From NCBI GenBank assembly GCA_001775395.1, contig MEWP01000094.1, positions 351 through 62,158 on the forward strand: a stretch of 61,808 nt of DNA, in the 5' to 3' direction. A program made the translations under genes and the position numbers. This document shows, piece by piece, positions 14,499-39,673 of this stretch. Each line of letters begins with the position of its first letter. Position 1 is the first letter of the stretch. The notes under the pieces are model-generated. The model was not told the DNA's origin, made no database searches, and saw only the letters and a program-made list of their open reading frames with translations. This stretch comes from a candidate division Zixibacteria bacterium RBG_16_53_22. Its GTDB lineage: Bacteria > Zixibacteria > MSB-5A5 > UBA10806.

Positions 14499-16997
14499 AT
14501 GTCTGACATAAAGTCGAAAGAAGTATCCGCAGGTTCGCACCCGTTCAAGGAAATTGAGGCCAAGTGGCGCAAGTTCTGGGAGGACAACGGGCATCATACG
14601 GCCGACCTGAACGATTCCGCTAAGAAGCTTTATTCGTTGGTGATGTTCTCATATCCGTCGGGTGAGAAGCTGCATATTGGCCATTGGTACAATTACGGGC
14701 CGGCCGACACATGGAGCCGAAAGAAGAAGATGGAGGGATTCAACGTCTTCGAGCCGATGGGGTATGATTCGTTTGGCCTGCCGGCTGAGAACTTCGCCCT
14801 CAAGTCGGGAGTTCATCCAGCCATCTCCACGGCGGCCAACGTCGATTATATCCGCGAGCAACTCAAACAGATCGGCGCCATGTACGATTGGTCGAAAGAA
14901 CTGGCCACCAGCGACCCGCAATACTACCGATGGACCCAGTGGCTTTTCCTGAAATTCTACGAGCATAGCATGGCAGTTCGAAAAGAGGCGCCGGTTAACT
15001 GGTGCCCATCGTGTAAAACCGTTTTGGCTAATGAACAGGTTATTAACGGCCGTTGCGAGCGCTGCGAGACGGAGATCACTCATAAGAACCTCAAGCAATG
15101 GTTTCTCAGGATCACCAGGTACGCCGACCGGCTCCTTGCCGGCCTGGACCGGCTCGACTGGCCGGCCAAGACGATCGCCATGCAACGCAATTGGATTGGC
15201 CGTTCCGAGGGTTCCGAGATTTTTTTCACTGGCGAGAAGTCAGGGGAGAGGATCCCCGTTTTCACCACCCGTGCCGATACCCTGTTCGGGGTGACCTATA
15301 TCGTGCTGGCGCCAGAGCATCCGCTGGTGGAAAAAATCACCGTGCCGGAATGCCGACAGGCAGTCATCGAATATGTTGAACGCAGCCGCAGGCTTTCGGA
15401 GATCGAACGCCTGTCGACCGTTAAGGAGAAAACCGGCGCCTTTACGGGAAGTTTCGCCCTAAATCCCATTAACGGAGAGCGCATTCAAATATGGATTGCC
15501 GATTATGTCCTGTACTCGTATGGAACCGGGGCTGTGATGGCAGTGCCCGGCCACGACCAACGTGACTGGGAATTTGCCACAAAGTTCAATTTGGAGATCA
15601 GGCAGGTTATAGAGCCGTCGGATGACTCATCGTTCGACCTGGCTCGAGGCGCCTTCGAGGATTACGGCAGGATGGTCAATTCGCGCGAGTTCACAGGCCT
15701 GGACTCCAGGATCGGCATGAACAAGGTCACGGAAAAGCTCAAATCGCAAGGCCAGGGCGATTTTAGGGTCAATTACAAGCTTCGGGATTGGCTCATATCG
15801 CGGCAACGGTATTGGGGCGCCCCGATTCCGATTATCCGCTGTGAGAAATGCGGCGATGTTCCCGTTTCGGAATCCGAACTGCCGGTGCTCTTGCCCAATA
15901 TCAGGAATTTCCATCCCACCGGCGAGGGCGAATCGCCGCTGGCGACATCGCCGGAGTTTGTCAATGTCAGATGTCCCAGGTGCGGCGGGGGCGCCCGACG
16001 CGAGACCGAGACGATGGACACCTTCGTGGATTCATCCTGGTATTTCCTCCGCTTCCTCGATCCCGCCTACGAGAAAGGTCCATGGGACCACGATCTGGTT
16101 CGCAAGTGGTTGCCGATCGACATGTATATCGGCGGCGCGGAGCACGCCGTAATGCATCTGATGTACGCTCGCTTCTTCTGTATGTTCTTGTTCGACATCG
16201 GATTGGTTCATTTCGATGAACCGTTTCTTAAACTGCGGCACCAGGGTTCCATAACAAGCAAAGGCTCCAAGATGTCCAAATCGCGGGGCAACGTAATCAA
16301 TCCGGAGCATTTTCTCGAACGATATGGTTCGGATACGCTTCGCATGTACTTGATGTTTATGGGTTCGTACAGCCTTGGCGGCGATTGGGATGATTCCGGC
16401 ATAAATGGCATATCTCGTTTTCTGGGAAGAGTTTACAGGCTTGTTTCGAAATACGCGTCAGAAATCAAGACGCGCTTTCCATTGGCGTATTCGGCAATCG
16501 ATCAGATGGACGCCGGCCTGAATCATCGCTTGAATCTGACAATCAAGCATGTCAGCGGGGATATCGAGACCTTGGAATTCAACACCGCTATAGCCGCCTG
16601 CATGGAATTGGTTAACGACCTGCAGAAGGTTTCTGAAAGCCAGCGCCTCAATAATAATCAGTTCTATTATTCGCTTCAGACATTGGTCCTGCTGATGGCG
16701 CCAATGGCCCCGCATTTGGCGGAGGAACTCTGGAGCATGATTGGCGGCAGCGGGACGATTTTCTCGCAAGCCTGGCCTCAGGCCGATCCACAGGCACTGG
16801 CGCTGAATACTATCACGATGGTGGTGCAGGTTAATGGCAGATTGCGCGGTAATTTTGACGTTCCGGCCGGGATCGATGAGGACGCGTTCTTCAAAATCGT
16901 GTCGCAAGACGAGCGCGTGGGCAAATTCATAGAGGGCAGACAGATAGTGAAGAAGGTGTTTGTCCCTGGAAAACTCCTGAATATAGTAATACGATAA
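14499..16997 (+). CDS. leuS: Leucyl-tRNA synthetase
   Basis: Class Ia synthetase that charges tRNA-Leu, 832 aa, the usual bacterial length. The HIGH motif appears as HIGHWYN (about residue 53) and KMSKS as SKMSKSRGN (about 590). The zinc-binding CPSC...CERC segment (about 168-190) and the CP1 editing domain (about 220-415, with the TTRADTLFG motif) are present. A second CxxC pair lies near 450-490. The C-terminal domain ends VFVPGKLLNIVIR. A strong terminator follows immediately, closing the plus-strand block. Confidence 0.97.
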   Translation: MSDIKSKEVSAGSHPFKEIEAKWRKFWEDNGHHTADLNDSAKKLYSLVMFSYPSGEKLHIGHWYNYGPADTWSRKKKMEGFNVFEPMGYDSFGLPAENFALKSGVHPAISTAANVDYIREQLKQIGAMYDWSKELATSDPQYYRWTQWLFLKFYEHSMAVRKEAPVNWCPSCKTVLANEQVINGRCERCETEITHKNLKQWFLRITRYADRLLAGLDRLDWPAKTIAMQRNWIGRSEGSEIFFTGEKSGERIPVFTTRADTLFGVTYIVLAPEHPLVEKITVPECRQAVIEYVERSRRLSEIERLSTVKEKTGAFTGSFALNPINGERIQIWIADYVLYSYGTGAVMAVPGHDQRDWEFATKFNLEIRQVIEPSDDSSFDLARGAFEDYGRMVNSREFTGLDSRIGMNKVTEKLKSQGQGDFRVNYKLRDWLISRQRYWGAPIPIIRCEKCGDVPVSESELPVLLPNIRNFHPTGEGESPLATSPEFVNVRCPRCGGGARRETETMDTFVDSSWYFLRFLDPAYEKGPWDHDLVRKWLPIDMYIGGAEHAVMHLMYARFFCMFLFDIGLVHFDEPFLKLRHQGSITSKGSKMSKSRGNVINPEHFLERYGSDTLRMYLMFMGSYSLGGDWDDSGINGISRFLGRVYRLVSKYASEIKTRFPLAYSAIDQMDAGLNHRLNLTIKHVSGDIETLEFNTAIAACMELVNDLQKVSESQRLNNNQFYYSLQTLVLLMAPMAPHLAEELWSMIGGSGTIFSQAWPQADPQALALNTITMVVQVNGRLRGNFDVPAGIDEDAFFKIVSQDERVGKFIEGRQIVKKVFVPGKLLNIVIR

Positions 16998-17003
16998 CCT
17001 TAG

Positions 17004-17030
17004 CCCGCATCGAGAGTTGATGCGGGTTTT
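17004..17030 (+). terminator. Intrinsic terminator of leuS
   Basis: CCCGCATC (17004-17011) pairs perfectly with GATGCGGG (17019-17026) around a 7-nt loop, followed by TTTT. It starts 7 nt after the leuS stop. The genes that follow are on the other strand. Confidence 0.88.
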
Positions 17031-17117
17031 GATTGCTATCTAAAGTTTACATAATATATCTTATAGGACGTAATACACACAGAAAGATGTCGCCCCCGAT
17101 GACTGGCACCTGCTGCC

Positions 17118-19289
17118 TCACACTACCCAGGGTATCTCTTTCGGGTTTGGAAGCTCGATTTTCAGGGCCTCCGCTGGAGGCCATGATTCCGATGGCTTGC
17201 CACCATCCAGTACGCTCAGGCGGACCAGATATTGGTTTTGCTTGGGAATCGGAAGCAGATTGAACGGAATGCCGACTTCAAGGATGTCACCAATGGCAAA
17301 ATTGATTTTGTCATCGAGTCGGCCATCAAGCGTAACGCTTTTTTCGGTGGGCCGAATAAGGACCGCCGATTTGCGGGAATTGACAAATTCAATTTCAAAG
17401 TCAAATGACATGAAACGCTTTCGGTCGACTGTGACACCCCTATCGAGCCTGAAATAAAGCTCAGATTCATCATATCCAAACCAAATACCCGAAAGCAGCC
17501 GTTCGGCCTTGTGCATGGTCGAGCCCGCCTTGGCGCAGTCAAAGAAGCCGGCCGACGCCCATTCATAATATTGTGTCACACGCCCATCGATTTTAGGCCT
17601 GATAAAATCGATAGGCTTGAGATAATGGGCGTCGATAAAACTGGTCCGTACCGGCTGGAATAGCTCCGGGGGTGGCTCGCGATCGGTTAATCGGTAAACA
17701 TTCGCCAGATGCGACCTGAAAAGCCTATCGAAATCGTCATTGTTGGGGCCAACATGATCGGGGCCGAACCACCAACACCAGTCGGAACCCTCGGCGATCA
17801 TTATCTCTTTCCAGGCCACCTTGAGTTTATCCTGGTCAAACCCCGGGGTGGCCTTCTGAAACGCCTCCAGCTGGTCGCGAACCGCGCCTAAAAGGTCCCA
17901 GGCCTTGTTATCCTCGGAATGGCCGATCCAGACAGCGAAATTGTGGCTAATCCAGCTTCCAGGAAATAATCTTTTGAGCTGCACAAGGTTAGGTCTACCA
18001 CTCAAATACTGTTCAAAGGTGCAGGTCTCCAACCAGGGAGCAGCGCCGATTTTTGTATATAAGGCTTGCAGAAAGTCATGGCCATCGTTCCTATAATATT
18101 CCCAGGCGTTTTCGCCATCGAGTATGACACAGGCAATCGGATCGGGCACGTTTCTGAGTATCAGGTTATTGTGAACTGCCCGGAGCTTGCCGACGAAGTC
18201 ATCGGCGGCCCGTTCCGGTTCCCAGCCCGAGTAGACGAATCCGATATTGTCTGACAAGGCGTGATCGCGGAAGAAAATCGAAATCGTTGCGCTTTCTTTT
18301 TGAAATTTATATCCCCGATATAATTCACCTGAATTGATGAGACTGTTGGGCAGATCATGCCTGGCCGGAATTCTCAGGCTTTCCGCCAGTATCTCCTCAT
18401 CGGTCGCAATCCACCTAAAGCCATACTTGCATATAATAGGGATAATATCCTCGGAGACAGAACCTTCCGATGGCCACATGCCGACCGGTTTGCGGCCAAA
18501 CAGGCGTTCATACATGGCGACAGCATCCGAGATTTGACGGTCGACATCCTCGGGATGTTGGAACCGTTTCTTTGGCAGGCTTGCCCCCGGCATAGCGGTC
18601 AACGCCGATGACGTATCGTAAAGAAGCGGCATGATGGGATGAAAATAAGGGGTCACCGAGACTTCGATTTGCCCTGATTCAATGTGAGCCTTTAGCGAGG
18701 GCACTATTCGCTGAATGATCTTTCTCTGGAATTCGAGCACCTCGAGCTTATCGCTTTCGGTGTACTTCTCCCCTTTCGCGACCAGCTCCTTCATGCGCCC
18801 GCCTGATTTGAACATCGGGTCTACCCAGGCCAGGTTAGCCAGGACCTGCAAATCCCGCCATTCCGCTGTATTCCATTCGGCTCCGGCTCGTTCTCGGCCG
18901 CGATGCAGGGCCGCGTATCTCCTGTTGGGGCCGATCATGGTGTCATAATTGGCCTGGAATAGAAGCTCGAGCATCATGCTCTTATCTTCGAAAGTGAGAT
19001 TTTGGGCGTTCTTGAGGCTTATTTCCAGGTGCGGGTCGAGCGCCGTGCCGTTAGCGTAATCCTCGAGCTGTTCGAGCAGGGATGGCACCATGTTGAAGGT
19101 TTGCTTGATCCGAGGATGGGAATCGAGGATTTCGACCATGTCCAAATAATCTTTGACTCCGTGCAGGCGGACCCACGGCAATAGATATCTGTCGGTCAGG
19201 AGGTCTTTATAGTATGGTTGATGCTGATGCCAGAGGAAGGCCAGTTTCAATACCTGGCCGGCCGGCTTTGATGATGGATCGGGCGTCAT
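17118..19289 (-). CDS. Glycoside hydrolase family 57 protein (amylase/glucanotransferase-like)
   Basis: A 723-aa probable alpha-1,4-glucan-acting enzyme with a (beta/alpha)7 barrel. The GH57 N-terminal signature LAFLWHQHQPYYKD is at about 15-29. MWPSEGSVS holds the likely catalytic nucleophile Glu275, and LDGENAWEYY the likely acid Asp391. The C-terminal 230 residues are a beta-rich domain. No signal peptide is visible, so it probably acts on intracellular glycogen or maltodextrin. Exact specificity (amylase, amylopullulanase, glucanotransferase) cannot be read from sequence alone. It lies 24 nt after a TPR membrane-protein gene and is probably co-transcribed with it. Confidence 0.9.
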   Translation of the reverse strand: MTPDPSSKPAGQVLKLAFLWHQHQPYYKDLLTDRYLLPWVRLHGVKDYLDMVEILDSHPRIKQTFNMVPSLLEQLEDYANGTALDPHLEISLKNAQNLTFEDKSMMLELLFQANYDTMIGPNRRYAALHRGRERAGAEWNTAEWRDLQVLANLAWVDPMFKSGGRMKELVAKGEKYTESDKLEVLEFQRKIIQRIVPSLKAHIESGQIEVSVTPYFHPIMPLLYDTSSALTAMPGASLPKKRFQHPEDVDRQISDAVAMYERLFGRKPVGMWPSEGSVSEDIIPIICKYGFRWIATDEEILAESLRIPARHDLPNSLINSGELYRGYKFQKESATISIFFRDHALSDNIGFVYSGWEPERAADDFVGKLRAVHNNLILRNVPDPIACVILDGENAWEYYRNDGHDFLQALYTKIGAAPWLETCTFEQYLSGRPNLVQLKRLFPGSWISHNFAVWIGHSEDNKAWDLLGAVRDQLEAFQKATPGFDQDKLKVAWKEIMIAEGSDWCWWFGPDHVGPNNDDFDRLFRSHLANVYRLTDREPPPELFQPVRTSFIDAHYLKPIDFIRPKIDGRVTQYYEWASAGFFDCAKAGSTMHKAERLLSGIWFGYDESELYFRLDRGVTVDRKRFMSFDFEIEFVNSRKSAVLIRPTEKSVTLDGRLDDKINFAIGDILEVGIPFNLLPIPKQNQYLVRLSVLDGGKPSESWPPAEALKIELPNPKEIPWVV

Positions 19290-30446: not shown

Positions 30447-31862
30447 TTACGCTTCCCCTTTTTTCGGCAAGCCGTACCGTTCTATCTTGCGGTAGAGCGT
30501 GGAAAGGTCGATACCGAGAATCTTGGCGGCCTGGTTCTTGTTCCATCCGGTCTGCGCCAGAGTGTAGAAGATATATGCTTTCTCCATCGACTCCAGATCC
30601 GGCCCGACAGATAGGCTGGCGGTTCTGTTCTTGATATCGGTGGCATTCCTGATTTCGTCGGGCAGATCATCGGGTCCAATGGTGACCCCGTGCGAGAGCA
30701 TGACGGTGCGTTCGAGGAGGTTTTCGAGTTGCCTGACATTTCCCGGCCAACTATAGGCTTTGAGCAGCCCCATGGCCTGTTCGCTTAGCGCTTTGTCCGG
30801 CATATCGAGCTTGGCGCAATGGCGTCGGACGAAATGCACCGCCAACAGCTCGATATCCTCACCTCTGTGACGGAGGGGCGGTATCTTTATGCTGAAAACG
30901 TTAAGCCTGTAGAAAAGGTCGGCCCGGAACGCCCCGTGATCGACGCGCTCCTGCAGGTTGGCATTGGTGGCGGCGATCAAGCGCACGTCGACGCATTGTG
31001 GCTTGGTGGCTCCCAACGGGGTAATCTCTTTTTCCTCGAGAACGCGCAACAGCTTGGCCTGGATCGCCGGGCTGGTCTCGCTGATCTCATCGAGGAAAAA
31101 GGTGCCGTCGACAGCGGCGGCGAATAACCCGACCTTATCCTTGATAGCGCCCGTAAACGATCCTTTGGTATGTCCGAAAAGCTCCGATTCGAGCAGGGTT
31201 TCGGGCAGGGCCGCGCAGTTGAGCGATAAAAATGGCTCGGAGGATCGATTGCTCTCGCTATGGATAGCGCGCGCCAAGACCTCTTTGCCGGTGCCCGATT
31301 CACCGCTGATTAAAACCGTGACATCGGTGGCGGCGGCCTTGGTCGCCAGCCGCTTTATTTCCACCACGGCCGCCGAGGATCCTATGAAGGAATCGAATCC
31401 GGTGGAGAGGTTTTCTTTCAACACCTGATACTGACGCTTGATTTGCTTCTGCTCGATAACCTTGCGGACCGCGATTTTGATCTCCTCGACCTTGAACGGC
31501 TTGGTAATATAATCATGAGCCCCATTCTTGAGGGCCTCGACTGCCGTGTCGATTGAGCCGAATGCGGTCATGACAATGAAATCTATACCGGGATCGATTC
31601 TCTGCGACGATTTGAGCAGTTCCAAACCCGACATTTCCGGCATCATAAGGTCGGTGACTACCAGGTCGAATCTTTTTTCGGGGTCGCGGGAGCCCTGGCG
31701 CAGTTCGGTCAGGGCCTGATTGGCCGATGTTTGATGCGAGACGGCGTAACCCTCTTTGCCGAGCATGATACTCAAGAATTCGCACATGCTCGGCTCATCG
31801 TCGACCACGAGAATGCGGGCGGCTGTCCGCTCTTTGGATGAAGCAGAAATGGCTTTAGACAT
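30447..31862 (-). CDS. NtrC-family sigma-54-dependent response regulator
   Basis: A 471-aa regulator. The receiver domain (about 16-130) has phospho-acceptor Asp71 in VVTDLMMPEMSG. The AAA+ domain (about 160-390) has Walker A GESGTGKE, a sigma-54 contact loop reading GSFTGA (a known variant of GAFTGA) and Walker B GTFFLDEIS. The Fis-type HTH near the C-terminus (NKNQAAKILGIDLSTLYRKIERYG) binds DNA. No sensor kinase gene is adjacent, so it is an orphan here. It is divergent from the porin-cytochrome-ccm unit, which makes that unit a candidate target; I see no clear -24/-12 element there. Confidence 0.92.
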   Translation of the reverse strand: MSKAISASSKERTAARILVVDDEPSMCEFLSIMLGKEGYAVSHQTSANQALTELRQGSRDPEKRFDLVVTDLMMPEMSGLELLKSSQRIDPGIDFIVMTAFGSIDTAVEALKNGAHDYITKPFKVEEIKIAVRKVIEQKQIKRQYQVLKENLSTGFDSFIGSSAAVVEIKRLATKAAATDVTVLISGESGTGKEVLARAIHSESNRSSEPFLSLNCAALPETLLESELFGHTKGSFTGAIKDKVGLFAAAVDGTFFLDEISETSPAIQAKLLRVLEEKEITPLGATKPQCVDVRLIAATNANLQERVDHGAFRADLFYRLNVFSIKIPPLRHRGEDIELLAVHFVRRHCAKLDMPDKALSEQAMGLLKAYSWPGNVRQLENLLERTVMLSHGVTIGPDDLPDEIRNATDIKNRTASLSVGPDLESMEKAYIFYTLAQTGWNKNQAAKILGIDLSTLYRKIERYGLPKKGEA

Positions 31863-32005: not shown

Positions 32006-32033
32006 TTGACAGCGGGTATGTTATCCTCATAAG
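32006..32033 (+). promoter_or_regulatory. Sigma-70-type promoter before the porin-cytochrome genes
   Basis: A consensus -35 TTGACA (32006-32011), 16-nt spacer and CATAAG (32028-32033, 4 of 6 matches) would start transcription about 15 nt before the ATG at 32057. A hairpin GGCCGG/CCGGCC lies upstream at 31895-31914, between the divergent genes. Confidence 0.5.
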
Positions 32034-32056
32034 AAGCTGGCATGATAGGAGGGAAA

Positions 32057-33304
32057 ATGTCCAAATTGATTAAGGTTAGTGTCGCGGCAGCAGTTTTGTG
32101 CCTGGCCAAGCCGGCCTTCCCGCAAACCATATTCGACGCTGGCGCCTGGACCGAGTTCTATACTTTCAAGGTCCCCGACCAGGATAACCAGCAGGTCAGG
32201 TCGCTTCAGGGGCTGAGGCTGCGGGCAAGCAATGTCGGAACGCCGGGCCTGAGTTTCTTCTTGCGCGGGCGAGTCTTGTCGGACCTTTCCGAGAAACTGG
32301 CCAGCGACCCCGATTTCCGAATCTTCGGCGCCTACGCTGAATATAAGCGCCGCGACCTACTGATGTTGCGCGTGGGGCGGCAATTCGTTTCTGCGGGCAT
32401 TGGCGGATTTACCATGGATGGAGGCAGGATCGACCTCTTCCCTGTTAACGTCGTCAAGCTCACAGCGTTCGCTGGCGGTCTGCCGGGACCATCCTTTTAC
32501 AAGTACGATCGGATCGCCCAATGGGATGATAGGAATGCAATCGGCGGACAACTCCAATACAATGGATTCAAAGAGTTCCGGCCATCGATCTCCTATCTTC
32601 AGCGCAGCTCGAATAATGATCTGGTCATGCAGGCGGGCGGCTTCGATGTCGCCATTAAAACCGGGCCTTACAGCGAATGGGCGGGACTGGATTACGATTT
32701 CCTGTTCAAGCATCTCAGATCGGGCGTTTCAAGGACAGGAATTGAATTCCAGGGCGGCCACCGCGCGGAATTCGAATATTTCTACCGCAGACCATCGCTG
32801 GATTTGAGCAACGTCTTCTCAGTCTTCAAGAACGAGCCTTTTCATCAGGTGCGCTTGAGTCCCACATATAGGATTAACAAGAAGGTCTTAGCCCAGGGCT
32901 CGATGTCATATACCATTTTCGAAGACGATGAAAATACCCGTATCTCGCTGGGGGGATCCTATGACGGGCAATCAGCCGGGGTGGTTTACTCGGCCGGGTA
33001 TGCCGGGACCAGACTGGGAATATACAGTTTCCTGTTCTATGACCTCGTGCAACAACTGCGGGTGTATCTCAACGCCGATATGTATAATTACAAACTCGAC
33101 ACCGAGGTGGATGACACAACACCGAGCGTTGCCACGTCATTTGGGGCGTTATTCGGCGTTTTCAGGGGCGTGAGCAGCCGCGCCGAGTTGCAGTTGCTCT
33201 CAAACCGTGATTTTAAGTACGATACCAGATTTTACTTTAAGATCGGTTATAATTTCAATTCGAGATCCCGAACCAGCGGGTCTGGAGGAGGTCTTTACCG
33301 ATGA
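32057..33304 (+). CDS. Outer-membrane porin-like beta-barrel, partner of a multiheme cytochrome
   Basis: 415 aa with a signal peptide (MSKLIKVSVAAAVLCLAKPAFPQ). The mature part is alternating amphipathic strands, for example LMLRVGRQFVSAG and TRLGIYSFLFYDL, and ends near FKIGYNF before a short Gly/Ser tail. ATG 32057 follows AGGAGGGAAA; an earlier in-frame ATG (32042) precedes that site. It overlaps the 13-heme cytochrome gene by 4 nt (ATGA), so the two are made together. By analogy with porin-cytochrome conduits it may hold the cytochrome in the outer membrane. It has no recognisable similarity to MtrB by eye, so that role is inferred. Confidence 0.75.
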   Translation: MSKLIKVSVAAAVLCLAKPAFPQTIFDAGAWTEFYTFKVPDQDNQQVRSLQGLRLRASNVGTPGLSFFLRGRVLSDLSEKLASDPDFRIFGAYAEYKRRDLLMLRVGRQFVSAGIGGFTMDGGRIDLFPVNVVKLTAFAGGLPGPSFYKYDRIAQWDDRNAIGGQLQYNGFKEFRPSISYLQRSSNNDLVMQAGGFDVAIKTGPYSEWAGLDYDFLFKHLRSGVSRTGIEFQGGHRAEFEYFYRRPSLDLSNVFSVFKNEPFHQVRLSPTYRINKKVLAQGSMSYTIFEDDENTRISLGGSYDGQSAGVVYSAGYAGTRLGIYSFLFYDLVQQLRVYLNADMYNYKLDTEVDDTTPSVATSFGALFGVFRGVSSRAELQLLSNRDFKYDTRFYFKIGYNFNSRSRTSGSGGGLYR

Positions 33305-34317
33305 TTCCGATTATTTTTAACATAATCGTGTCGTTGATATTCACGACCTACGAGAAAACCGAATCGGACATTACATTCAGCCACAAGGCCCATTTCGGAG
33401 ATCGCGATATCGAATGCCAGGCATGTCATAAGGCCGCCCAGAGCGTATCGGCCGATGACATTAATATGCCGGGTCATGACGAATGCTCCGAATGCCACTC
33501 GGTTTCCAACGCTCCCGATGATTGCGGAATTTGCCACGCCGATCCGGCAAACCCCAAAGGTATCACAATGGCTGAGCGGGAAATCACCTTCTCGCATAGG
33601 GCGCATCTCGGAGACAATCCCACGTCGGATGATTGCCTTTCATGTCATCAGGGAATCGACCAGCTCGTATCGCAGCTGACATCCACAGAATATCCCTGGG
33701 TTGAGTGCGAGGCCTGCCATTCCAGGCCGGCGATCGTGACGGCGCTTGTTCATCCGCCCGATTGGGGGCATGCGCACAAGTTTGCGGCCGCTGATGATCA
33801 AAGGCAGTCATGCGCCCCGTGTCATCACAATGAATCGTTTTGCAGCGATTGTCACGCCGGCGATAACCTGGTTGAAACCGTGCACGACCTGAACTATCGT
33901 TTCAATCATGGCCTCGATGCCAAGGGCAAGGAATCCCAATGCCAGAGCTGCCACGATTTCGAGACATTCTGCGGCGATTGTCACAACCAGGAGGACGTCA
34001 TTCCGCTCAGCCATTTTTATCAAGTCTGGAATCCCCGGACTAATCCCGGTACCCACGCCGATTTCGCCAGGAAGGATATCGAATCGTGCGCCTCGTGCCA
34101 TGACGATCAAAGCTTCACCTGCGGCCAATCCGGCTGTCATGGCGACCGGGATGGTATCAGGGGCACCGATCCCGATATTCACCCCAGCGATTTCATGGAT
34201 TCGGAGAAGGGGCCGTGGCATGATGATCCCGAATTCGAGTGTTTCCGGTGCCACACCAATACAAATCGTGCCGGCACTCGATTTTGCGGCTATTGTCATG
34301 GGGAGAACGGGGAATAA
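33301..34317 (+). CDS. 13-heme c-type cytochrome
   Basis: 338 aa with twelve CxxCH motifs (CQACH, CSECH, CGICH, CLSCH, CEACH, CAPCH, CSDCH, CQSCH, CGDCH, CASCH, CFRCH, CGYCH) and one CX4CH (CGQSGCH). The sequences DITFSHKAHFGD and EITFSHRAHLGD repeat ahead of CxxCH sites, as in cytochrome c7/c3-type units whose first His is a distal ligand. The N-terminus MIPIIFNIIVSLIFTTYE is hydrophobic but has no basic residue, an unusual signal sequence. A strong GGAGGAGG precedes the ATG, which overlaps the porin stop. It likely carries electrons across the periplasm or outer membrane, and needs the ccm genes that follow. Confidence 0.93.
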   Translation: MIPIIFNIIVSLIFTTYEKTESDITFSHKAHFGDRDIECQACHKAAQSVSADDINMPGHDECSECHSVSNAPDDCGICHADPANPKGITMAEREITFSHRAHLGDNPTSDDCLSCHQGIDQLVSQLTSTEYPWVECEACHSRPAIVTALVHPPDWGHAHKFAAADDQRQSCAPCHHNESFCSDCHAGDNLVETVHDLNYRFNHGLDAKGKESQCQSCHDFETFCGDCHNQEDVIPLSHFYQVWNPRTNPGTHADFARKDIESCASCHDDQSFTCGQSGCHGDRDGIRGTDPDIHPSDFMDSEKGPWHDDPEFECFRCHTNTNRAGTRFCGYCHGENGE

Positions 34318-34405
34318 GGGCGATATCGCGGGCCGATTGGACAGAGGCGCGGCTTACCAGGCCGCTATGCCGAGAGGTCGGCCGATAAGCTATTATTAAG
34401 ACCGC

Positions 34406-35020
34406 ATGAGCTTGAAATTGACAATTGACGGGTTGGCCAAGGAATTTCCCGGCCGACCCGTTTTTTCGGATATCTCGGCCGTGGTCGAAGAAGGCAGGAG
34501 GCTTGTAATAACCGGCCCGAACGGCTCCGGCAAATCGACATTGGTTCGAATCCTCTGCGCTTTCAACCGACCGACCAGGGGCAGTGTCGGATTCGAGATA
34601 GACGAAAAGAAACTCACGCATCTGGAGATCAGGCCTCATATCGGTTTGGTCTCACCCGATATGGTCCTTTATGACGAGCTGACAGCAATCGAAAATCTGT
34701 CTTTTTTCGCCGAGGTGGCCGGCCACAGATTCGAAATTCCCGAACTCGAACGGCGGCTGGAGAATATCGGCCTGGCGGGACGGGGCCGTGATTTTGTCGG
34801 TTCCTATTCCTCGGGAATGAAGCAGCGCCTCAAATATTGCCTGGCGCTTCTGCGAGAGCCGGAAATCCTCATTCTCGATGAGCCGACAGCCAATCTCGAC
34901 GAGCGCGGCAAGGGGTTGGTCGATGATATAATTCGTTCGCATCACGGGATCGTGGTGATCGCGACAAACGAGAAAGCGGAACTTTTCTATGGCGACCAGT
35001 TCATCAGGCTCGGCGACTAA
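34406..35020 (+). CDS. ccmA: Haem exporter-type ABC ATPase CcmA
   Basis: A 204-aa ATPase of the CcmAB complex, which releases holo-CcmE from CcmC during cytochrome c maturation. Walker A is GPNGSGKST (about 36-44), the signature YSSGMKQRL (about 134-142) and Walker B EILILDEPTANLD (about 152-164). The short length is typical of CcmA. On sequence alone it could be any small ABC ATPase, but overlap with ccmB by 32 nt and the ccmC-F genes behind it settle the role. Confidence 0.9.
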   Translation: MSLKLTIDGLAKEFPGRPVFSDISAVVEEGRRLVITGPNGSGKSTLVRILCAFNRPTRGSVGFEIDEKKLTHLEIRPHIGLVSPDMVLYDELTAIENLSFFAEVAGHRFEIPELERRLENIGLAGRGRDFVGSYSSGMKQRLKYCLALLREPEILILDEPTANLDERGKGLVDDIIRSHHGIVVIATNEKAELFYGDQFIRLGD

Positions 35021-35675
35021 GGCGATCTCGCTTTTCCTCAAGGATATCAAGAGCGAGTTTCGCACCCGCTACGCCATTAACGCTATCGCCATGTTTGCGG
35101 TGGTGACCGTGTTCGCCATATCTTTCGCAATCAAGGGCACCGGCCTTTCGACAGAGTTACAAGCGTCGCTCCTCTGGATAGTAATCTATTTTTCCTCGCT
35201 CTCTGGTCTGGCCCAGAGCTTCGTCAAGGAGGAGGAATCGAAAACCGCCATGGCTCTTCGGCTATACGCGCCGGCCGAGGTTATTTTCGCGGGGAAACTT
35301 CTTTTCAATCTTGTTCTTCTTTTCGGCCTGAACCTGATCACAATTCCCCTGTTTGCCATATTCATCAGTTTCGAAGTCGCCAGCTACCCGTTGTTTTTTG
35401 CGATATTGCTGATCGGTTCAACCGGGCTGGCGGTAGTGACTACATTTGTGGCGGCGATCATTTCCAAGGCCTCTGTGAAAGGAGCCCTATTCGCCGTACT
35501 GTCGTTCCCGCTAATACTTCCCCTATTGGTGGAGGCGATCTCCGGAACAAAAAAAGCTATGACTGATGGCATCGCGTTTGGCGCGGCTCGCATGGAAATA
35601 CAGGTCCTCCTTTCCTATCTTGTTATTATGGTTGTGCTTAGCTTTCTGCTCTTTGAGGCGGTCTGGAACGATTGA
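34989..35675 (+). CDS. ccmB: Haem exporter membrane protein CcmB
   Basis: A 228-aa integral membrane protein with about six helices and few charges. Family-typical parts are FLKDIKSEFRTRYAINA at the N-terminus, SGLAQSFVKEEESKTAMALRLYAP (parts SFVKEEES and ALRLYAP) and FPLILPLLVEAI. It pairs with CcmA in cytochrome c biogenesis. The start ATG 34989 lies inside the end of ccmA, suggesting coupled translation. A 141-nt gap with a possible promoter separates it from ccmC. Confidence 0.9.
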   Translation: MATSSSGSATKAISLFLKDIKSEFRTRYAINAIAMFAVVTVFAISFAIKGTGLSTELQASLLWIVIYFSSLSGLAQSFVKEEESKTAMALRLYAPAEVIFAGKLLFNLVLLFGLNLITIPLFAIFISFEVASYPLFFAILLIGSTGLAVVTTFVAAIISKASVKGALFAVLSFPLILPLLVEAISGTKKAMTDGIAFGAARMEIQVLLSYLVIMVVLSFLLFEAVWND

Positions 35676-35740
35676 TTCCCGATATCACGTAACATCAAGG
35701 TAAATCGGGAGTTATTGAACTACGTTGACGTATTTTAGTA

Positions 35741-35770
35741 TTGACTTTTAATTGCGAAACGTCTTATTAA
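35741..35770 (+). promoter_or_regulatory. Possible promoter before ccmC
   Basis: TTGACT (35741-35746) and TATTAA (35765-35770) stand 18 nt apart, with 5 of 6 and 4 of 6 consensus matches. It lies in the only sizeable gap between ccmB and ccmC. The segment is AT-rich compared with its surroundings. Confidence 0.35.
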
Positions 35771-35816
35771 TGCCGAAACTTAACTACTAAGATGAGGGTT
35801 TGGTGATTTCGCTGGT

Positions 35817-36482
35817 ATGATTTGGAAAGTTGTTTTGCTGCTGATAATTAGCTGGGTAACTGTCGGCGCCTGGGTATTCCCTCCGCCGACACCGGTGATA
35901 GATAATCCGGAGGTTTTCCGCATTATCTATTTCCATTTCCCGATGGCGATAACCACCGTGGTGGCTTATGGCCTGGGGATGTTCTATTCGATAAAGTATC
36001 TCTCGGAACGAAACATGAAATATGATCTGCGCGAGGTGGCGTCGGCCAGGCTGGGTACCATATTTTGCGTATTGGCGGCCGTCTCAGGCTCGATTTTCGC
36101 CAAGAACACATGGGGATCTTATTGGAACTGGGATCCCAGGGAAACCTCGATATTCATGCTTCTGCTGGTTTACGGCGCCTATTTTGCCTTGCGATCGGCT
36201 GTTTCCGATCCCGACCAGAGAGCCAATCTCTCGGCCGTCTATTCGATATTCGGATTTGTGGCGGCCATATTCTTCATCTTTATCATGCCGCGCATCATGC
36301 CGGGGCTTCATCCGGGGGCGCCGAAACCGACCGGCGGCAGCGAAGGCTCGATCATCACTTTCAATCTTGAAACGGCCAGCGTTTTGATTCCGTCATGCCT
36401 GGCCTATATCGGTGTTTTCATTTGGATGAAAAATCTGACGGTTGATATAACCGAACTTGGGAAAGGGAATAAGGGTGTCTAA
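35817..36482 (+). CDS. ccmC: Haem handling protein CcmC
   Basis: A 221-aa membrane protein with six helices that loads haem onto CcmE. The periplasmic tryptophan-rich WWD motif is clear (TWGSYWNWDPRETS, about 100-113). Conserved His residues occur in IIYFHFPMA (about 42) and in the later loop LHPGAPKP. It overlaps the small ccmD ORF by 8 nt. Confidence 0.93.
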   Translation: MIWKVVLLLIISWVTVGAWVFPPPTPVIDNPEVFRIIYFHFPMAITTVVAYGLGMFYSIKYLSERNMKYDLREVASARLGTIFCVLAAVSGSIFAKNTWGSYWNWDPRETSIFMLLLVYGAYFALRSAVSDPDQRANLSAVYSIFGFVAAIFFIFIMPRIMPGLHPGAPKPTGGSEGSIITFNLETASVLIPSCLAYIGVFIWMKNLTVDITELGKGNKGV

Positions 36483-36582
36483 TTACATTCCAATGGGAGT
36501 TGCCTTATTGGGCTGGGTAGCCCTATGGGTATACCTTTTTTCACTCGATCAGAAGATCAAAAGGATAAAGAAGGATGCATAA
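36475..36582 (+). CDS. ccmD: CcmD-like small membrane protein
   Basis: A 35-aa peptide starting with GTG (MSNYIPMGVALLGWVALWVY...) with one membrane helix and a basic C-terminal tail (QKIKRIKKDA). This is the usual plan of CcmD, which stabilises the CcmC-CcmE complex. It overlaps ccmC by 8 nt and ccmE by 8 nt, the standard place for ccmD. Sequence conservation in this family is low, so position and topology carry the call. Confidence 0.8.
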   Translation: MSNYIPMGVALLGWVALWVYLFSLDQKIKRIKKDA

Positions 36583-36967
36583 GAATCTCAAGAGGGGAAT
36601 TGCGCTTGGCGTGGTGTTAGTGGCCGCCGGAGTCGGAATATTGTCGCTGGTCACAGGCGGCGGGGTCACGCCCTATGTCGGCTTTTCGGAGGCTCGGGCG
36701 GCCAAGGGAAATGTTCAGGTCATGGGTGAAATCCAGGCTGAACAGACCAGCTATGACACGCAGGCCGGCTCGTTTTCATTCTATATTATCGATGCCAACG
36801 GCGATCGCATGAAGGTGGTTTATGGCGGCACCAAGCCGGGCAACTTCGACCAGGCCACGTCAGTGGTATGCATAGGCCGTTACGAGCAAGAGGCCTTTTA
36901 CGCCGACAAGCTCTTGATTAAATGCCCATCAAAATATCAGAACGCTCCGACCGAATCGGGAGCGTGA
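36575..36967 (+). CDS. ccmE: Haem chaperone CcmE, cysteine (CxxxY) variant
   Basis: A 130-aa periplasmic haem chaperone anchored by one N-terminal helix (about 8-28). The OB-fold core is seen in KGNVQVMGEI, FSFYIIDANGD and VVYGGTKPGNF. The haem-binding site reads CPSKY (Cys117, Tyr121) in place of the usual HxxxY. That Cys variant is known in archaea, Desulfovibrio and some other bacteria and goes with absence of CcmH (variant 'System I*'). The C-terminus stops nine residues after the Tyr. Confidence 0.93.
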   Translation: MHKNLKRGIALGVVLVAAGVGILSLVTGGGVTPYVGFSEARAAKGNVQVMGEIQAEQTSYDTQAGSFSFYIIDANGDRMKVVYGGTKPGNFDQATSVVCIGRYEQEAFYADKLLIKCPSKYQNAPTESGA

Positions 36968-37081
36968 TTGGTCCTCCAAAAGGGCGGGCGATTATCCAGA
37001 TTCATACAGGGACACGCCGAGTCGTGTCCAATGTTCAATGCGAGGGGCCCGATGTGGCCGCCAATAAAATGAGGGGTTAGT

Positions 37082-39673
37082 ATGGATATAGGTAATTTTC
37101 TATTAGCCTGGGCCCCGGTGCCATTGATACTGGCTATGGCCGGATATTTGATGGCCGCCACCGGAAACAGGCAATATCAACTTGGAGCCAGGGTTGTTTA
37201 TTGGGTCTTATTGGCTATGGTTGGGGCGGCGTTCATCAACCTGATGTCATTGTTCTTGGCTGATCGTTTCGAATTCTCCTACGTCGCCACCTACTCGTCA
37301 CGCGACCTTTCCAATACCTGGCCGCATTTCTTCAAATTCAGCGCTCTCTGGGCCGGCCAGCAGGGCACTTTCATGCTGTGGCTGGTCTATGGCCTGGTCC
37401 TCGGAATCTGGGTGCGCGCCCGAGCCAAGGAAAACGAGGGCTGGGTCATGTTTTTCTATATCCTGGCTCAGACATTTCTCCTCGTTCTGGCCCTGATTTC
37501 CAAACCGTTTGCCAGGCTCGATTTCATGCCCGCCGACGGCCAGGGGCTCAATCCCCTGCTTCAGAATTATTGGATGCAGATTCATCCGCCGATCGTCTTC
37601 CTGGGATTCGCGGCGGCCTGCATCCCGTTCGCATTCGCGATGGCGGCGCTGGCGACGAACAAGTACGACAGTTGGGTCAGGCAGACAATGCCCTGGGCCG
37701 TCTTTTCGGTTGTGACGCTGGGGCTGGGGATCTTTCTGGGAGGATATTGGGCATACGAGACCCTGGGCTGGGGCGGATATTGGGCCTGGGACCCGGTCGA
37801 GAACGCCTCGGCAATCCCCTGGATGACGGGAATCGCGCTTGTTCACGGCATGGTCGTGGAACGCACGCGCGGCTCCTGGCGACGGATGAATCTTTTCCTG
37901 GCGATCACGCTGTTTCTCTTGATTGTCTATGGCACGTTCCTGACACGATCGGGCGTGCTGGCCGATTTCTCGGTGCACTCTTTTGTCGACCTGGGATACA
38001 ATAATGCTCTTTGGATATCGATAGCCGTCATAGCCGCGTTAGCGTATGGCTTGTTCGCTTACAGAGCGCGAAAGATCAAGGGCGCCACACCAAGCAGCGA
38101 TTTTCTCTCGCAGGAATTTACGACATTTCTGGCGGTGGCGCTTCTCTTGCCATTTATAGTCCTGGTGCTGTTCTGGACCTCATTTCCATTGATCACGACC
38201 ATCTTCTCCCAGGTGCCAGTTCTGTCGAAAATAACCCCGAAGCCGGCGGCGATTGCAACCTCATACTACAACATGGCGGGCCTGATTTTCTCGACCATTT
38301 TCGCCCTGATCCTGGGATTCAATTCGCTTCTATACTGGCGTAAGACCGAGACCGAGCTTGTTCTGAAGAGGCTCCTGCCGCCGCTGATTATTTCCGGCGC
38401 CGGCGCCATCCTGTTTTTCGCATTCGGATTTACGAAGATCGTGGAATTCTGGTCGTGGCCCGACCCACCGAGCATATCGGTCAAAATTATTCTGGTCGCG
38501 GCATTATATCTGATTTTCTTTTTCTCCGTTCTCTTTGCCTTCATTACCAACCTCCTTTATCTGGTCCGGCATCGCAACGGAAGTTTTCGAACCAGGGGCG
38601 GCTACCTGGCCCACGTGGGATTCTCAATCATGCTGATGGGCGTGATACTATCGTCGAGCTTTGGAGACAAGACCAAGATCACCATACCCGCGGGCGAATC
38701 CAAGTCGGCGCTGGGATACGATATCAAGTTTGTCGGGACCGAACGCCTCGGCCCCAAGGAAGAGCTGACTAATTTCGAGGTCAAGAGAGACGGCGAGTCG
38801 TTCCAGGCGCATTCGGTCACCAAGGCGATGGGGCGCGGCGACAATGTCCAATTCGCCAGGACCCCGCATATCAAGAAATATCTGCTTTCCGATTTATATT
38901 TATCGCTTGAAAATATCACCGAGGGCGGGCAATTAAGCATGCAGCCGTTCACGCTGGGGATCGCCGGCAGAGCCGAGCTCGGAGGCAAGCAGTTTGTTCT
39001 CACGGGATTCGACAGCGACGAGAACAAGCGGCAATTGGCTCGCCTTCAGCCGCAGGTATTCGAGGTCGCCAAGGGGCAATCGTTCAATATCGGCGACCGC
39101 AAGGTGACTTTCGAAAAGTTCGAAATGGGCGCTCATGAGTCGGGGATGGCCTCGAATATCGGAGCGGTTCTGCACGTCGAGCAGAATGGCAAGACCACGA
39201 CCATTGTCCCGGTCTATGAGCCGCTCGCCGGCGGGGAGCACCGCTCTCATCCGATCGATATGCCGGGCGGCGGGGCGATCGCGCTGACGGCAATCAGGGC
39301 CGATATAGGCGCGGTCAGCCTGTCCTATTCGACATCAAAGGAGAAGGCCTCTGTCAGCCTGGGTACCAACCTGCTGGTTATCGAGGGCGCCGATACATCC
39401 AGGGTTGCCCCTGTGTTCGATCCATCGACAGCGCATGGCGATAATAGCGTCGCAACTTTCGCCGACGGGAGCCAGCTATTCCTGGTCGAAATCGATGCTT
39501 CCGGCGATTCGGCGTCTTACGTTTATGTCCCCAGCCAGAAACCGATGCTGGCCACGGTCGAGCTGTCCACCAAGCCGATGATAAACCTGGTTTGGTTAGG
39601 ATTCCTGACTATCGTGGTTGGCGCGGCCATTTCGTTTCTCAGGCGCATGAAGGAAAGCAAGATCAAGGAATAG
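37082..39673 (+). CDS. ccmF: Cytochrome c haem lyase CcmF
   Basis: An 863-aa polytopic membrane protein that attaches haem from CcmE to apocytochromes. The WWD motif GYWAWDPVENAS lies near residues 235-245; WAGQQGTFMLW and conserved His residues (for example IHPPIVFLG) are also present. About 14 helices fill the first 550 residues. A periplasmic domain of roughly 290 residues follows, with a last helix (LVWLGFLTIVVGAAISFL). With no CcmH or CcmG in view, CcmF may take apocytochrome directly, as proposed for System I*. Confidence 0.95.
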   Translation: MDIGNFLLAWAPVPLILAMAGYLMAATGNRQYQLGARVVYWVLLAMVGAAFINLMSLFLADRFEFSYVATYSSRDLSNTWPHFFKFSALWAGQQGTFMLWLVYGLVLGIWVRARAKENEGWVMFFYILAQTFLLVLALISKPFARLDFMPADGQGLNPLLQNYWMQIHPPIVFLGFAAACIPFAFAMAALATNKYDSWVRQTMPWAVFSVVTLGLGIFLGGYWAYETLGWGGYWAWDPVENASAIPWMTGIALVHGMVVERTRGSWRRMNLFLAITLFLLIVYGTFLTRSGVLADFSVHSFVDLGYNNALWISIAVIAALAYGLFAYRARKIKGATPSSDFLSQEFTTFLAVALLLPFIVLVLFWTSFPLITTIFSQVPVLSKITPKPAAIATSYYNMAGLIFSTIFALILGFNSLLYWRKTETELVLKRLLPPLIISGAGAILFFAFGFTKIVEFWSWPDPPSISVKIILVAALYLIFFFSVLFAFITNLLYLVRHRNGSFRTRGGYLAHVGFSIMLMGVILSSSFGDKTKITIPAGESKSALGYDIKFVGTERLGPKEELTNFEVKRDGESFQAHSVTKAMGRGDNVQFARTPHIKKYLLSDLYLSLENITEGGQLSMQPFTLGIAGRAELGGKQFVLTGFDSDENKRQLARLQPQVFEVAKGQSFNIGDRKVTFEKFEMGAHESGMASNIGAVLHVEQNGKTTTIVPVYEPLAGGEHRSHPIDMPGGGAIALTAIRADIGAVSLSYSTSKEKASVSLGTNLLVIEGADTSRVAPVFDPSTAHGDNSVATFADGSQLFLVEIDASGDSASYVYVPSQKPMLATVELSTKPMINLVWLGFLTIVVGAAISFLRRMKESKIKE

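What the first reader, a model, noticed from the sequence alone, without database searches (positions are those of the whole stretch)
32006..39673. Porin + 13-heme cytochrome + System I* maturation genes as one electron-transfer locus
An outer-membrane barrel and a 13-heme cytochrome overlap by 4 nt and are followed on the same strand by ccmA-F. This is the minimal kit for a trans-outer-membrane electron conduit plus its own haem attachment machinery. The barrel is not recognisably MtrB, PioB or OmcB-associated, so this could be a distinct porin-cytochrome type.
Basis: partly seen in the sequence, partly recalled or inferred. Interest (0 to 1): 0.72.

Follow-up and report, generated by a model that had tools for sequence, protein, structure and literature searches.

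The report
Porin-cytochrome electron conduit in Zixibacteria
Two overlapping genes of an uncultured Zixibacteria bacterium most likely build a protein-insulated wire, a 22-stranded outer-membrane tube with a 13-heme cytochrome, that carries respiratory electrons out of the cell; it is a member of a known but barely studied type of conduit, and it sits by lineage-specific linkage next to the cell's only heme-attachment genes.

Summary
A 415-aa outer-membrane barrel (32057-33304) overlaps by 4 nt a cytochrome (33301-34317) with 12 CXXCH and one CX4CH motif, followed by ccmA, B, C, an overlooked ccmD-like gene, E and F. The pair is a real unit. In all 30 Zixibacteria genomes (of 133) that hold the cytochrome, the barrel gene is adjacent and on the same strand. 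The barrel also precedes the cytochrome in 77 of 80 loci from Ignavibacteria, KSB1, Calditrichota and relatives. AlphaFold2 gives a confident 22-stranded barrel (pLDDT 92) with no plug domain, wider than ordinary 16-18-stranded porins and narrower than MtrB. It matches no Pfam or NCBIfam family, MtrB/PioB included. The closest published system is the Ignavibacterium album porin-cytochrome pair (IALB_1839/1838; Shi et al. 2014). Best reading: a trans-outer-membrane electron conduit of that type. Correction: the ccm genes are not 'its own' machinery. CcmE is single-copy in the genome, and in relatives ccm occurs without the pair or unlinked to it. Relatives usually add a third, multiheme gene (often a predicted lipoprotein); in Zixibacteria this carries 11, 16, 21 or 56 hemes. 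The window's lineage lacks it at this locus. New member of a known kind; moderate interest.

The parts
32057..33304 (+). Outer-membrane beta-barrel (porin of the pair), 415 aa, signal peptide, 22 predicted strands, no plug domain, no Cys in the mature chain
   Evidence: homologue adjacent to the cytochrome in all relatives with an uncut locus
33301..34317 (+). 13-heme c-type cytochrome (12 CXXCH + CX4CH), 338 aa, N-terminal half like cytochrome c7 chains; family consensus 14 hemes, one lost here by a 14-residue deletion near residue 135
34406..35020 (+). ccmA, heme-export ABC ATPase of System I*
   Evidence: TIGR01189 E=4e-31, below its cut-off; 70-73% identity to the gene in the same place in G001 and G002
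34989..35675 (+). ccmB
   Evidence: PF03379 E=3e-20
35817..36482 (+). ccmC
36475..36582 (+). ccmD-like single-TM peptide, 35 aa, GTG start, overlapping ccmC and ccmE
   Evidence: TIGR04391 CcmD_alt E=0.0027, below its cut-off; position and TM+basic tail read from sequence
36575..36967 (+). ccmE with CXXXY heme site (CPSKY); only CcmE found in the genome
37082..39673 (+). ccmF heme lyase
30447..31862 (-). Divergent sigma-54-dependent response regulator (AtoC/NtrC type); possible regulator, relation to the pair not shown
   Evidence: position only

Best explanation
The two overlapping genes encode a trans-outer-membrane electron conduit of the porin-cytochrome (Pcc) kind. The barrel inserts in the outer membrane as a 22-stranded, unplugged tube. 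The 13-heme cytochrome, a thin chain of c7-like bis-histidine hemes exported to the periplasm and matured by System I* (CcmABC(D)EF), threads into or docks in the tube from the periplasmic side and carries electrons from periplasmic carriers, ultimately quinol, to the cell surface. In most relatives an adjacent multiheme gene, often a predicted lipoprotein, would take the electrons over outside. In this lineage that gene is absent from the locus, so either the cytochrome tip itself faces the outside (as proposed for the two-gene Pcc of Anaeromyxobacter and Kuenenia) or an unlinked multiheme protein acts as acceptor. Shown here: gene anatomy, heme motifs, conservation of the pair, barrel fold prediction, single ccm set. 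Inferred: insertion of the cytochrome in the barrel, direction of electron flow, final acceptor (Fe(III)/Mn(IV) oxides, humics or partner cells).
For: Heme motifs and conserved distal His. Pair conservation: both genes adjacent and co-oriented in all 30 Zixibacteria genomes with the cytochrome; the only two genomes with the barrel alone have it cut by a contig end or fragmented. In 77 of 80 loci in other phyla the barrel is directly upstream; the other three are cut by contig ends or joined in one ORF. Barrel AlphaFold2 pLDDT 92.4, 22 strands; ideal backbone diameter about 40 A against about 31 A for 16 strands and 47 A for 26. Neighbours are electron-transfer genes: a c554-type tetraheme cytochrome two genes upstream in most Ignavibacteria loci, Rieske + cytochrome b + 9-heme cytochrome upstream in several Zixibacteria, multiheme genes downstream in 80 of 102 loci. 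Distance matrices of barrel and cytochrome correlate at r=0.91 (permutation maximum 0.32), as expected for co-inheritance. Published precedent: I. album IALB_1839/1838, a porin plus a 400-aa, 14-heme cytochrome (PMC4245776).
Against: No complex was modelled. The cytochrome model is poor (pLDDT 65), as expected without hemes, and Foldseek found no solved trans-membrane conduit close to either protein. The cytochrome's signal sequence in the window is short and lacks basic residues. The correlation of distances would also arise from simple operon inheritance. No expression or physiology is known for this organism.
Confidence: 0.8

Rival explanations
1. The barrel is an export gate rather than a sheath: it passes the cytochrome, or a multiheme lipoprotein encoded nearby, to the surface, where the cytochrome works as a free surface protein or polymerises into a filament.
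For: c7-like chains are known as extended wires (GSU1996, 3ov0, is the best PDB profile hit). Third genes with 11-56 hemes and lipobox-like starts sit beside the pair in relatives. The barrel's weak Foldseek hits include the usher translocation pores FimD and PapC.
Against: The Foldseek hits are weak (TM 0.3-0.5) and generic to large barrels; there is no usher plug, chaperone or secretion ATPase. A fixed 13-14-heme cytochrome always paired with one barrel fits a stoichiometric complex better. The cytochrome length (338-430 aa) fits a membrane-spanning wire.
Confidence: 0.1
2. The barrel is an ordinary nutrient porin or transporter, co-transcribed by chance with a periplasmic cytochrome that serves another respiratory chain.
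For: A few of the 71 barrel homologues show weak matches to generic OMP families: LptD 12, OMP_b-brl 8, Porin_4 3.
Against: The window barrel matches no transporter family. Twenty-two strands without a plug is unlike Porin_4 or OprD. The pairing is kept without exception in at least eight phylum-level groups and tens of genomes.
Confidence: 0.04
3. The same conduit runs inward: it takes electrons from Fe(II), minerals or partner cells for autotrophic or lithotrophic growth.
For: Two-gene conduits without an outer cytochrome are typical of Fe(II) oxidisers (mto/pio; PMC4245776). Zixibacteria with rTCA and mtr-type genes have been reported (PMC9769843).
Against: Most relatives add an outer multiheme gene and quinol-oxidising modules (Rieske/cytochrome b), and Melioribacter reduces Fe(III) (PMC6137239), which points outward. 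Sequence cannot settle direction.
Confidence: 0.15

Closest known systems
Ignavibacterium album Pcc pair IALB_1839 (porin) / IALB_1838 (400 aa, 14 hemes), Shi et al. 2014 (PMC4245776)
   Same: Same gene order, similar cytochrome size and heme number. The Ignavibacteria loci found here, including MAGs labelled Ignavibacterium sp. (L093, 401 aa, 14 hemes) and Melioribacter roseus (L079, L087), are homologous to the window pair (cytochrome 37-38% identity in alignment A4; barrel recovered by profile, E about 1e-73 to 1e-74).
   Different: The window cytochrome is about 60 aa shorter with one heme fewer, has no flanking c554-type or downstream multiheme gene, and is followed by ccm genes. The type-strain sequences themselves could not be fetched; identification with IALB_1838/1839 rests on the published description and on congeneric MAGs.
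Two-gene Pcc of Anaeromyxobacter and Ca. Kuenenia (PMC4245776)
   Same: Porin plus one large cytochrome (338-344 aa, 12-14 hemes), no outer-membrane cytochrome gene: the same architecture and size as the window pair.
   Different: Sequence relationship not testable here; different phyla; no ccm linkage mentioned in the passages read.
Geobacter OmbB-OmaB-OmcB (Pcc)
   Same: Barrel size class (18-22 strands predicted by Shi et al.) and the functional concept.
   Different: OmaB has 8 hemes; OmcB is an OM lipoprotein encoded in the same cluster. Relatives of the window pair show that third role, the window does not. Homology was asserted for I. album by Shi et al. but not retested here.
MtrAB / MtoAB / PioAB
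   Same: Works alike: multiheme cytochrome sheathed by an OM barrel.
   Different: MtrB/PioB barrels have 26-28 strands and their own Pfam/NCBIfam models; the window barrel matches neither and the genome has no PF11854 hit. MtrA-type cytochromes have 10 hemes.
Cyc2 fused porin-cytochrome
   Same: Trans-OM electron transfer by a barrel plus heme.
   Different: Cyc2 is a single monoheme fusion with a 16-stranded barrel (own knowledge); here two genes, 13 hemes, 22 strands.

Membership tests
Porin-cytochrome (Pcc) complexes, I. album type | Gene for a porin-like OMP always adjacent to a gene for a multiheme cytochrome | tested here: met
Porin-cytochrome (Pcc) complexes, I. album type | Barrel of 18-22 strands, smaller than MtrB | tested here: met
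   22 strands in the AlphaFold2 model, pLDDT 92; published range 18-22
Porin-cytochrome (Pcc) complexes, I. album type | Periplasmic cytochrome with 5-14 hemes; I. album type about 14 hemes and 400 aa | tested here: met
   13 hemes, 338 aa; homologues 11-14 hemes
Porin-cytochrome (Pcc) complexes, I. album type | Sequence homology to the I. album pair | tested here: inconclusive
   Homology to congeneric MAG pairs (L093) and to Melioribacter roseus MAGs shown; type-strain sequences not available
Porin-cytochrome (Pcc) complexes, I. album type | Outer-membrane/extracellular multiheme cytochrome in the cluster (usual, not obligatory) | tested here: not met
   No cytochrome gene between the pair and ccmA; no homologue of the Zixibacteria 11-heme lipoprotein found in the own genome. 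Shi et al. accept two-gene clusters without it, so this does not exclude membership
Porin-cytochrome (Pcc) complexes, I. album type | Electron transfer across the outer membrane by the assembled complex | not testable with these tools
   needs protein work
MtrAB/PioAB | Barrel matches MtrB_PioB (PF11854 / TIGR03509) | tested here: not met
   (only one of 71 homologues gives a weak TIGR03509 hit, E=0.0016)
MtrAB/PioAB | Decaheme MtrA-type cytochrome (TIGR03508 above cut-off) | tested here: not met
   19 bits against a cut-off of 192; 13 hemes
Cytochrome c maturation System I* | CcmE with CXXXY instead of HXXXY | tested here: met
   CPSKY in the 36575-36967 product; motif definition PMC9084895
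Cytochrome c maturation System I* | No CcmH | tested here: met
   PF03918 absent, controls positive; genome 96% complete
Dedicated heme machinery for this conduit | ccm set additional to, or always linked with, the pair | tested here: not met
   single CcmE in the genome; CcmE in relatives without the pair (G003, G004, G005, G008) and far from it in others

The most novel reading that the evidence does not exclude
The pair is the fixed core of an unnamed FCB-wide conduit family whose outer end is built from repeats of about 190 aa: adjacent multiheme genes with 11, 16, 21 and, in one genome, 56 CXXCH (11 tandem 192-aa units, the last partial, each full one with five CXXCH and one CX4CH). This would make it the root of a genetically encoded single-chain wire of variable length. 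In the window's lineage the outer module was dropped, and the cytochrome itself, or an unlinked protein such as the genome's 43-heme cytochrome, serves as the surface terminal.
Probability: 0.25. Interest if true: 0.75.

Novelty: new member of a known kind. Interest (0 to 1): 0.45.

Why it matters
It places a third structural class of outer-membrane electron conduit (compact 22-stranded barrel plus one 13-14-heme cytochrome) as a conserved unit across Zixibacteria, Ignavibacteria, KSB1, Calditrichota, Latescibacterota and neighbours, phyla common in sediments and aquifers with few or no cultures. It gives profiles that annotation libraries lack: the barrel matches no Pfam or NCBIfam family. 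Cultured Ignavibacteria (Melioribacter, Ignavibacterium) offer a tractable test of whether a barrel narrower than MtrB can sheathe a heme wire.

Tried and rejected
Dedicated ccm machinery: rejected, single-copy CcmE and unlinked ccm in relatives. Natural barrel-cytochrome fusion as proof of contact: L140 (KSB1) has both in one ORF, but a signal peptide lies at the junction, so a lost stop or sequencing error is more likely; not used. MtrB/PioB membership: rejected by HMM. Barrel homology to solved porins: sequence profile found nothing up to E=10; Foldseek only generic barrels, TM up to 0.52. Cytochrome fold search: low-confidence model, only weak hits to alternative complex III cytochromes. 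The sigma-70/terminator scan is at chance level, so no operon boundary is claimed. The Melioribacter respiratory multi-omics paper (PMC5492636) does not discuss the pair.
Full report
What is there. The window is contig C94 of a 3.86-Mb, 96% complete genome; its nearest named relatives are Zixibacteria MAGs. The barrel gene starts best at ATG 32057, after a GGAGGG Shine-Dalgarno, with a standard signal peptide; its stop overlaps the cytochrome start by four bases, and an AGGAGG site for the cytochrome lies in the barrel's last codons. The cytochrome has 12 CXXCH and one CX4CH, no Cys outside them, and 12 conserved distal His. Twelve CXXCH in one ORF is not chance: the other five frames of the window hold two in all. 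Pfam sees a cytochrome c7 domain at the N-terminus, and profile searches of the PDB give the c7 chain GSU1996 and other c7-like proteins. ccmA, B, C, E and F follow, with a 35-aa ccmD-like gene between C and E. CcmE has the CXXXY site and no CcmH is found genome-wide, so System I* is right.

Is the pair a unit? In 133 genomes of the phylum, strong barrel hits (E below 1e-20) occur in 32 and strong cytochrome hits (E below 1e-29) in 30, all among those 32; every one of the 31 loci with both has the genes adjacent and co-oriented. The two barrel-only genomes have the barrel at a contig end (G107, six bases left) or in fragments (G119). A scan of GTDB genomes with the cytochrome profile gave 80 loci, mainly Ignavibacteria and 'Bacteroidetes' MAGs plus KSB1, Calditrichota, Latescibacterota, Neomarinimicrobiota, Kryptoniota and Zixibacteria. 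The barrel homologue is directly upstream in 77, joined in one ORF in one, and two contigs begin at the cytochrome. Heme numbers are 11-14, mostly 13 or 14. The window protein lost one family heme through a 14-residue deletion near residue 135; G002 lost a neighbouring one. Barrel and cytochrome distance matrices correlate at 0.91, consistent with co-inheritance but not proof of contact.

The barrel. AlphaFold2 on 71 homologues gives pLDDT 92.4, pTM 0.82 and 22 strands with short turns and no plug. An ideal 22-stranded barrel has a backbone diameter of about 40 A, between 16-stranded porins (31 A) and 26-stranded MtrB (47 A). It matches no Pfam or NCBIfam model. Foldseek gives only generic large barrels with TM up to 0.52. 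The cytochrome model is poor (pLDDT 65), as expected without hemes.

Neighbourhoods. In most Ignavibacteria a c554-type tetraheme cytochrome lies two genes upstream and a multiheme gene downstream. Across 102 partly redundant loci, 80 have a multiheme gene directly after the pair. In Zixibacteria this third gene has 11, 16, 21 or 56 CXXCH with lengths rising by about 190 aa per five hemes; the 56-heme protein (L071) is 2252 aa with units of 192 aa repeating. Several Zixibacteria have Rieske, cytochrome b and a 9-heme cytochrome upstream of the pair. The window lineage (G000, G001, G002) instead has ccm genes; family f11 (G017, G031) has pair, a 6-heme gene, then ccm. No homologue of the 11-heme third gene was found in the own genome (no positive control genome was included), but it holds a 43-heme, 1079-aa cytochrome and others.

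The ccm genes. CcmE is single-copy in the genome. Relatives without the pair (G003, G004, G005, G008) have CcmE, and relatives with the pair (G032, G047, G056, G128 and others) have it elsewhere. So ccm is general housekeeping; its place here is lineage-specific and may help co-expression, nothing more.

Known systems. Shi et al. 2014 (PMC4245776) listed Ignavibacterium album IALB_1839/1838 as a Pcc pair standing apart from the Geobacter groups, with a 400-aa, 14-heme cytochrome, and described two-gene Pcc pairs (338-344 aa, 12-14 hemes) in Anaeromyxobacter and Kuenenia. Later papers report Pcc-type porins in Melioribacter and other Ignavibacteriales (PMC7399161, PMC6137239) and Pcc operons in Zixibacteria (PMC7005843). 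The window pair is therefore a new member of a known kind. Its barrel family is unnamed and outside MtrB/PioB, and this lineage has a stripped two-gene form.

Verdict. Conduit reading about 0.8; direction of flow, docking mode and acceptor are inferred. Interest 0.45.

Noticed in passing
L071:3443-10201 (+) (also L056:9255-16013, -; genome G032): Third gene after the pair encodes a 2252-aa protein with 56 CXXCH and 11 CX4CH in tandem units of 192 aa (neighbouring units about 53-80% identical when in register), with a lipobox-like N-terminus; other Zixibacteria carry 11-, 16- and 21-heme versions.
   Followed up: partly
G000:C1 = L155:13477-16716 (-), with L155:12653-13450 and 16671-17897: The window's own genome encodes a 43-heme, 1079-aa cytochrome between a 10-heme one and a 16-heme fragment cut by the contig end.
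   Followed up: partly
L065:9081-14941 (G000:C69): Pentaheme c7-type cytochrome, followed by what look like molybdopterin-type, FeS and NrfD-type genes: an alternative-complex-III/Qrc-like quinol oxidoreductase that could feed periplasmic cytochromes. Subunits named by eye, not by HMM.
   Followed up: no
L057:4612-7441, L059:2032-4861, L055:2646-5466: Rieske, cytochrome b and a 9-heme cytochrome stand upstream of the porin-cytochrome pair in one Zixibacteria family, a plausible direct link from quinol to conduit.
   Followed up: partly
L140:100-1938 (KSB1): Barrel and cytochrome are joined in one open frame with a signal-peptide-like stretch at the junction; lost stop, sequencing error or true fusion not resolved.
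   Followed up: partly
window 36475-36582: Overlooked 35-aa ccmD-like gene with a GTG start, overlapping both ccmC and ccmE.
   Followed up: yes
window 30447-31862 (-): Sigma-54-dependent response regulator divergent from the barrel gene, about 190 bp away; possible regulator, untested.
   Followed up: no
window 33301-33360: The cytochrome's N-terminus (MIPIIFNIIVSLIFTTYE) is an unusually short export signal without basic residues, although the start codon is well supported by a Shine-Dalgarno; most relatives have normal signals.
   Followed up: partly
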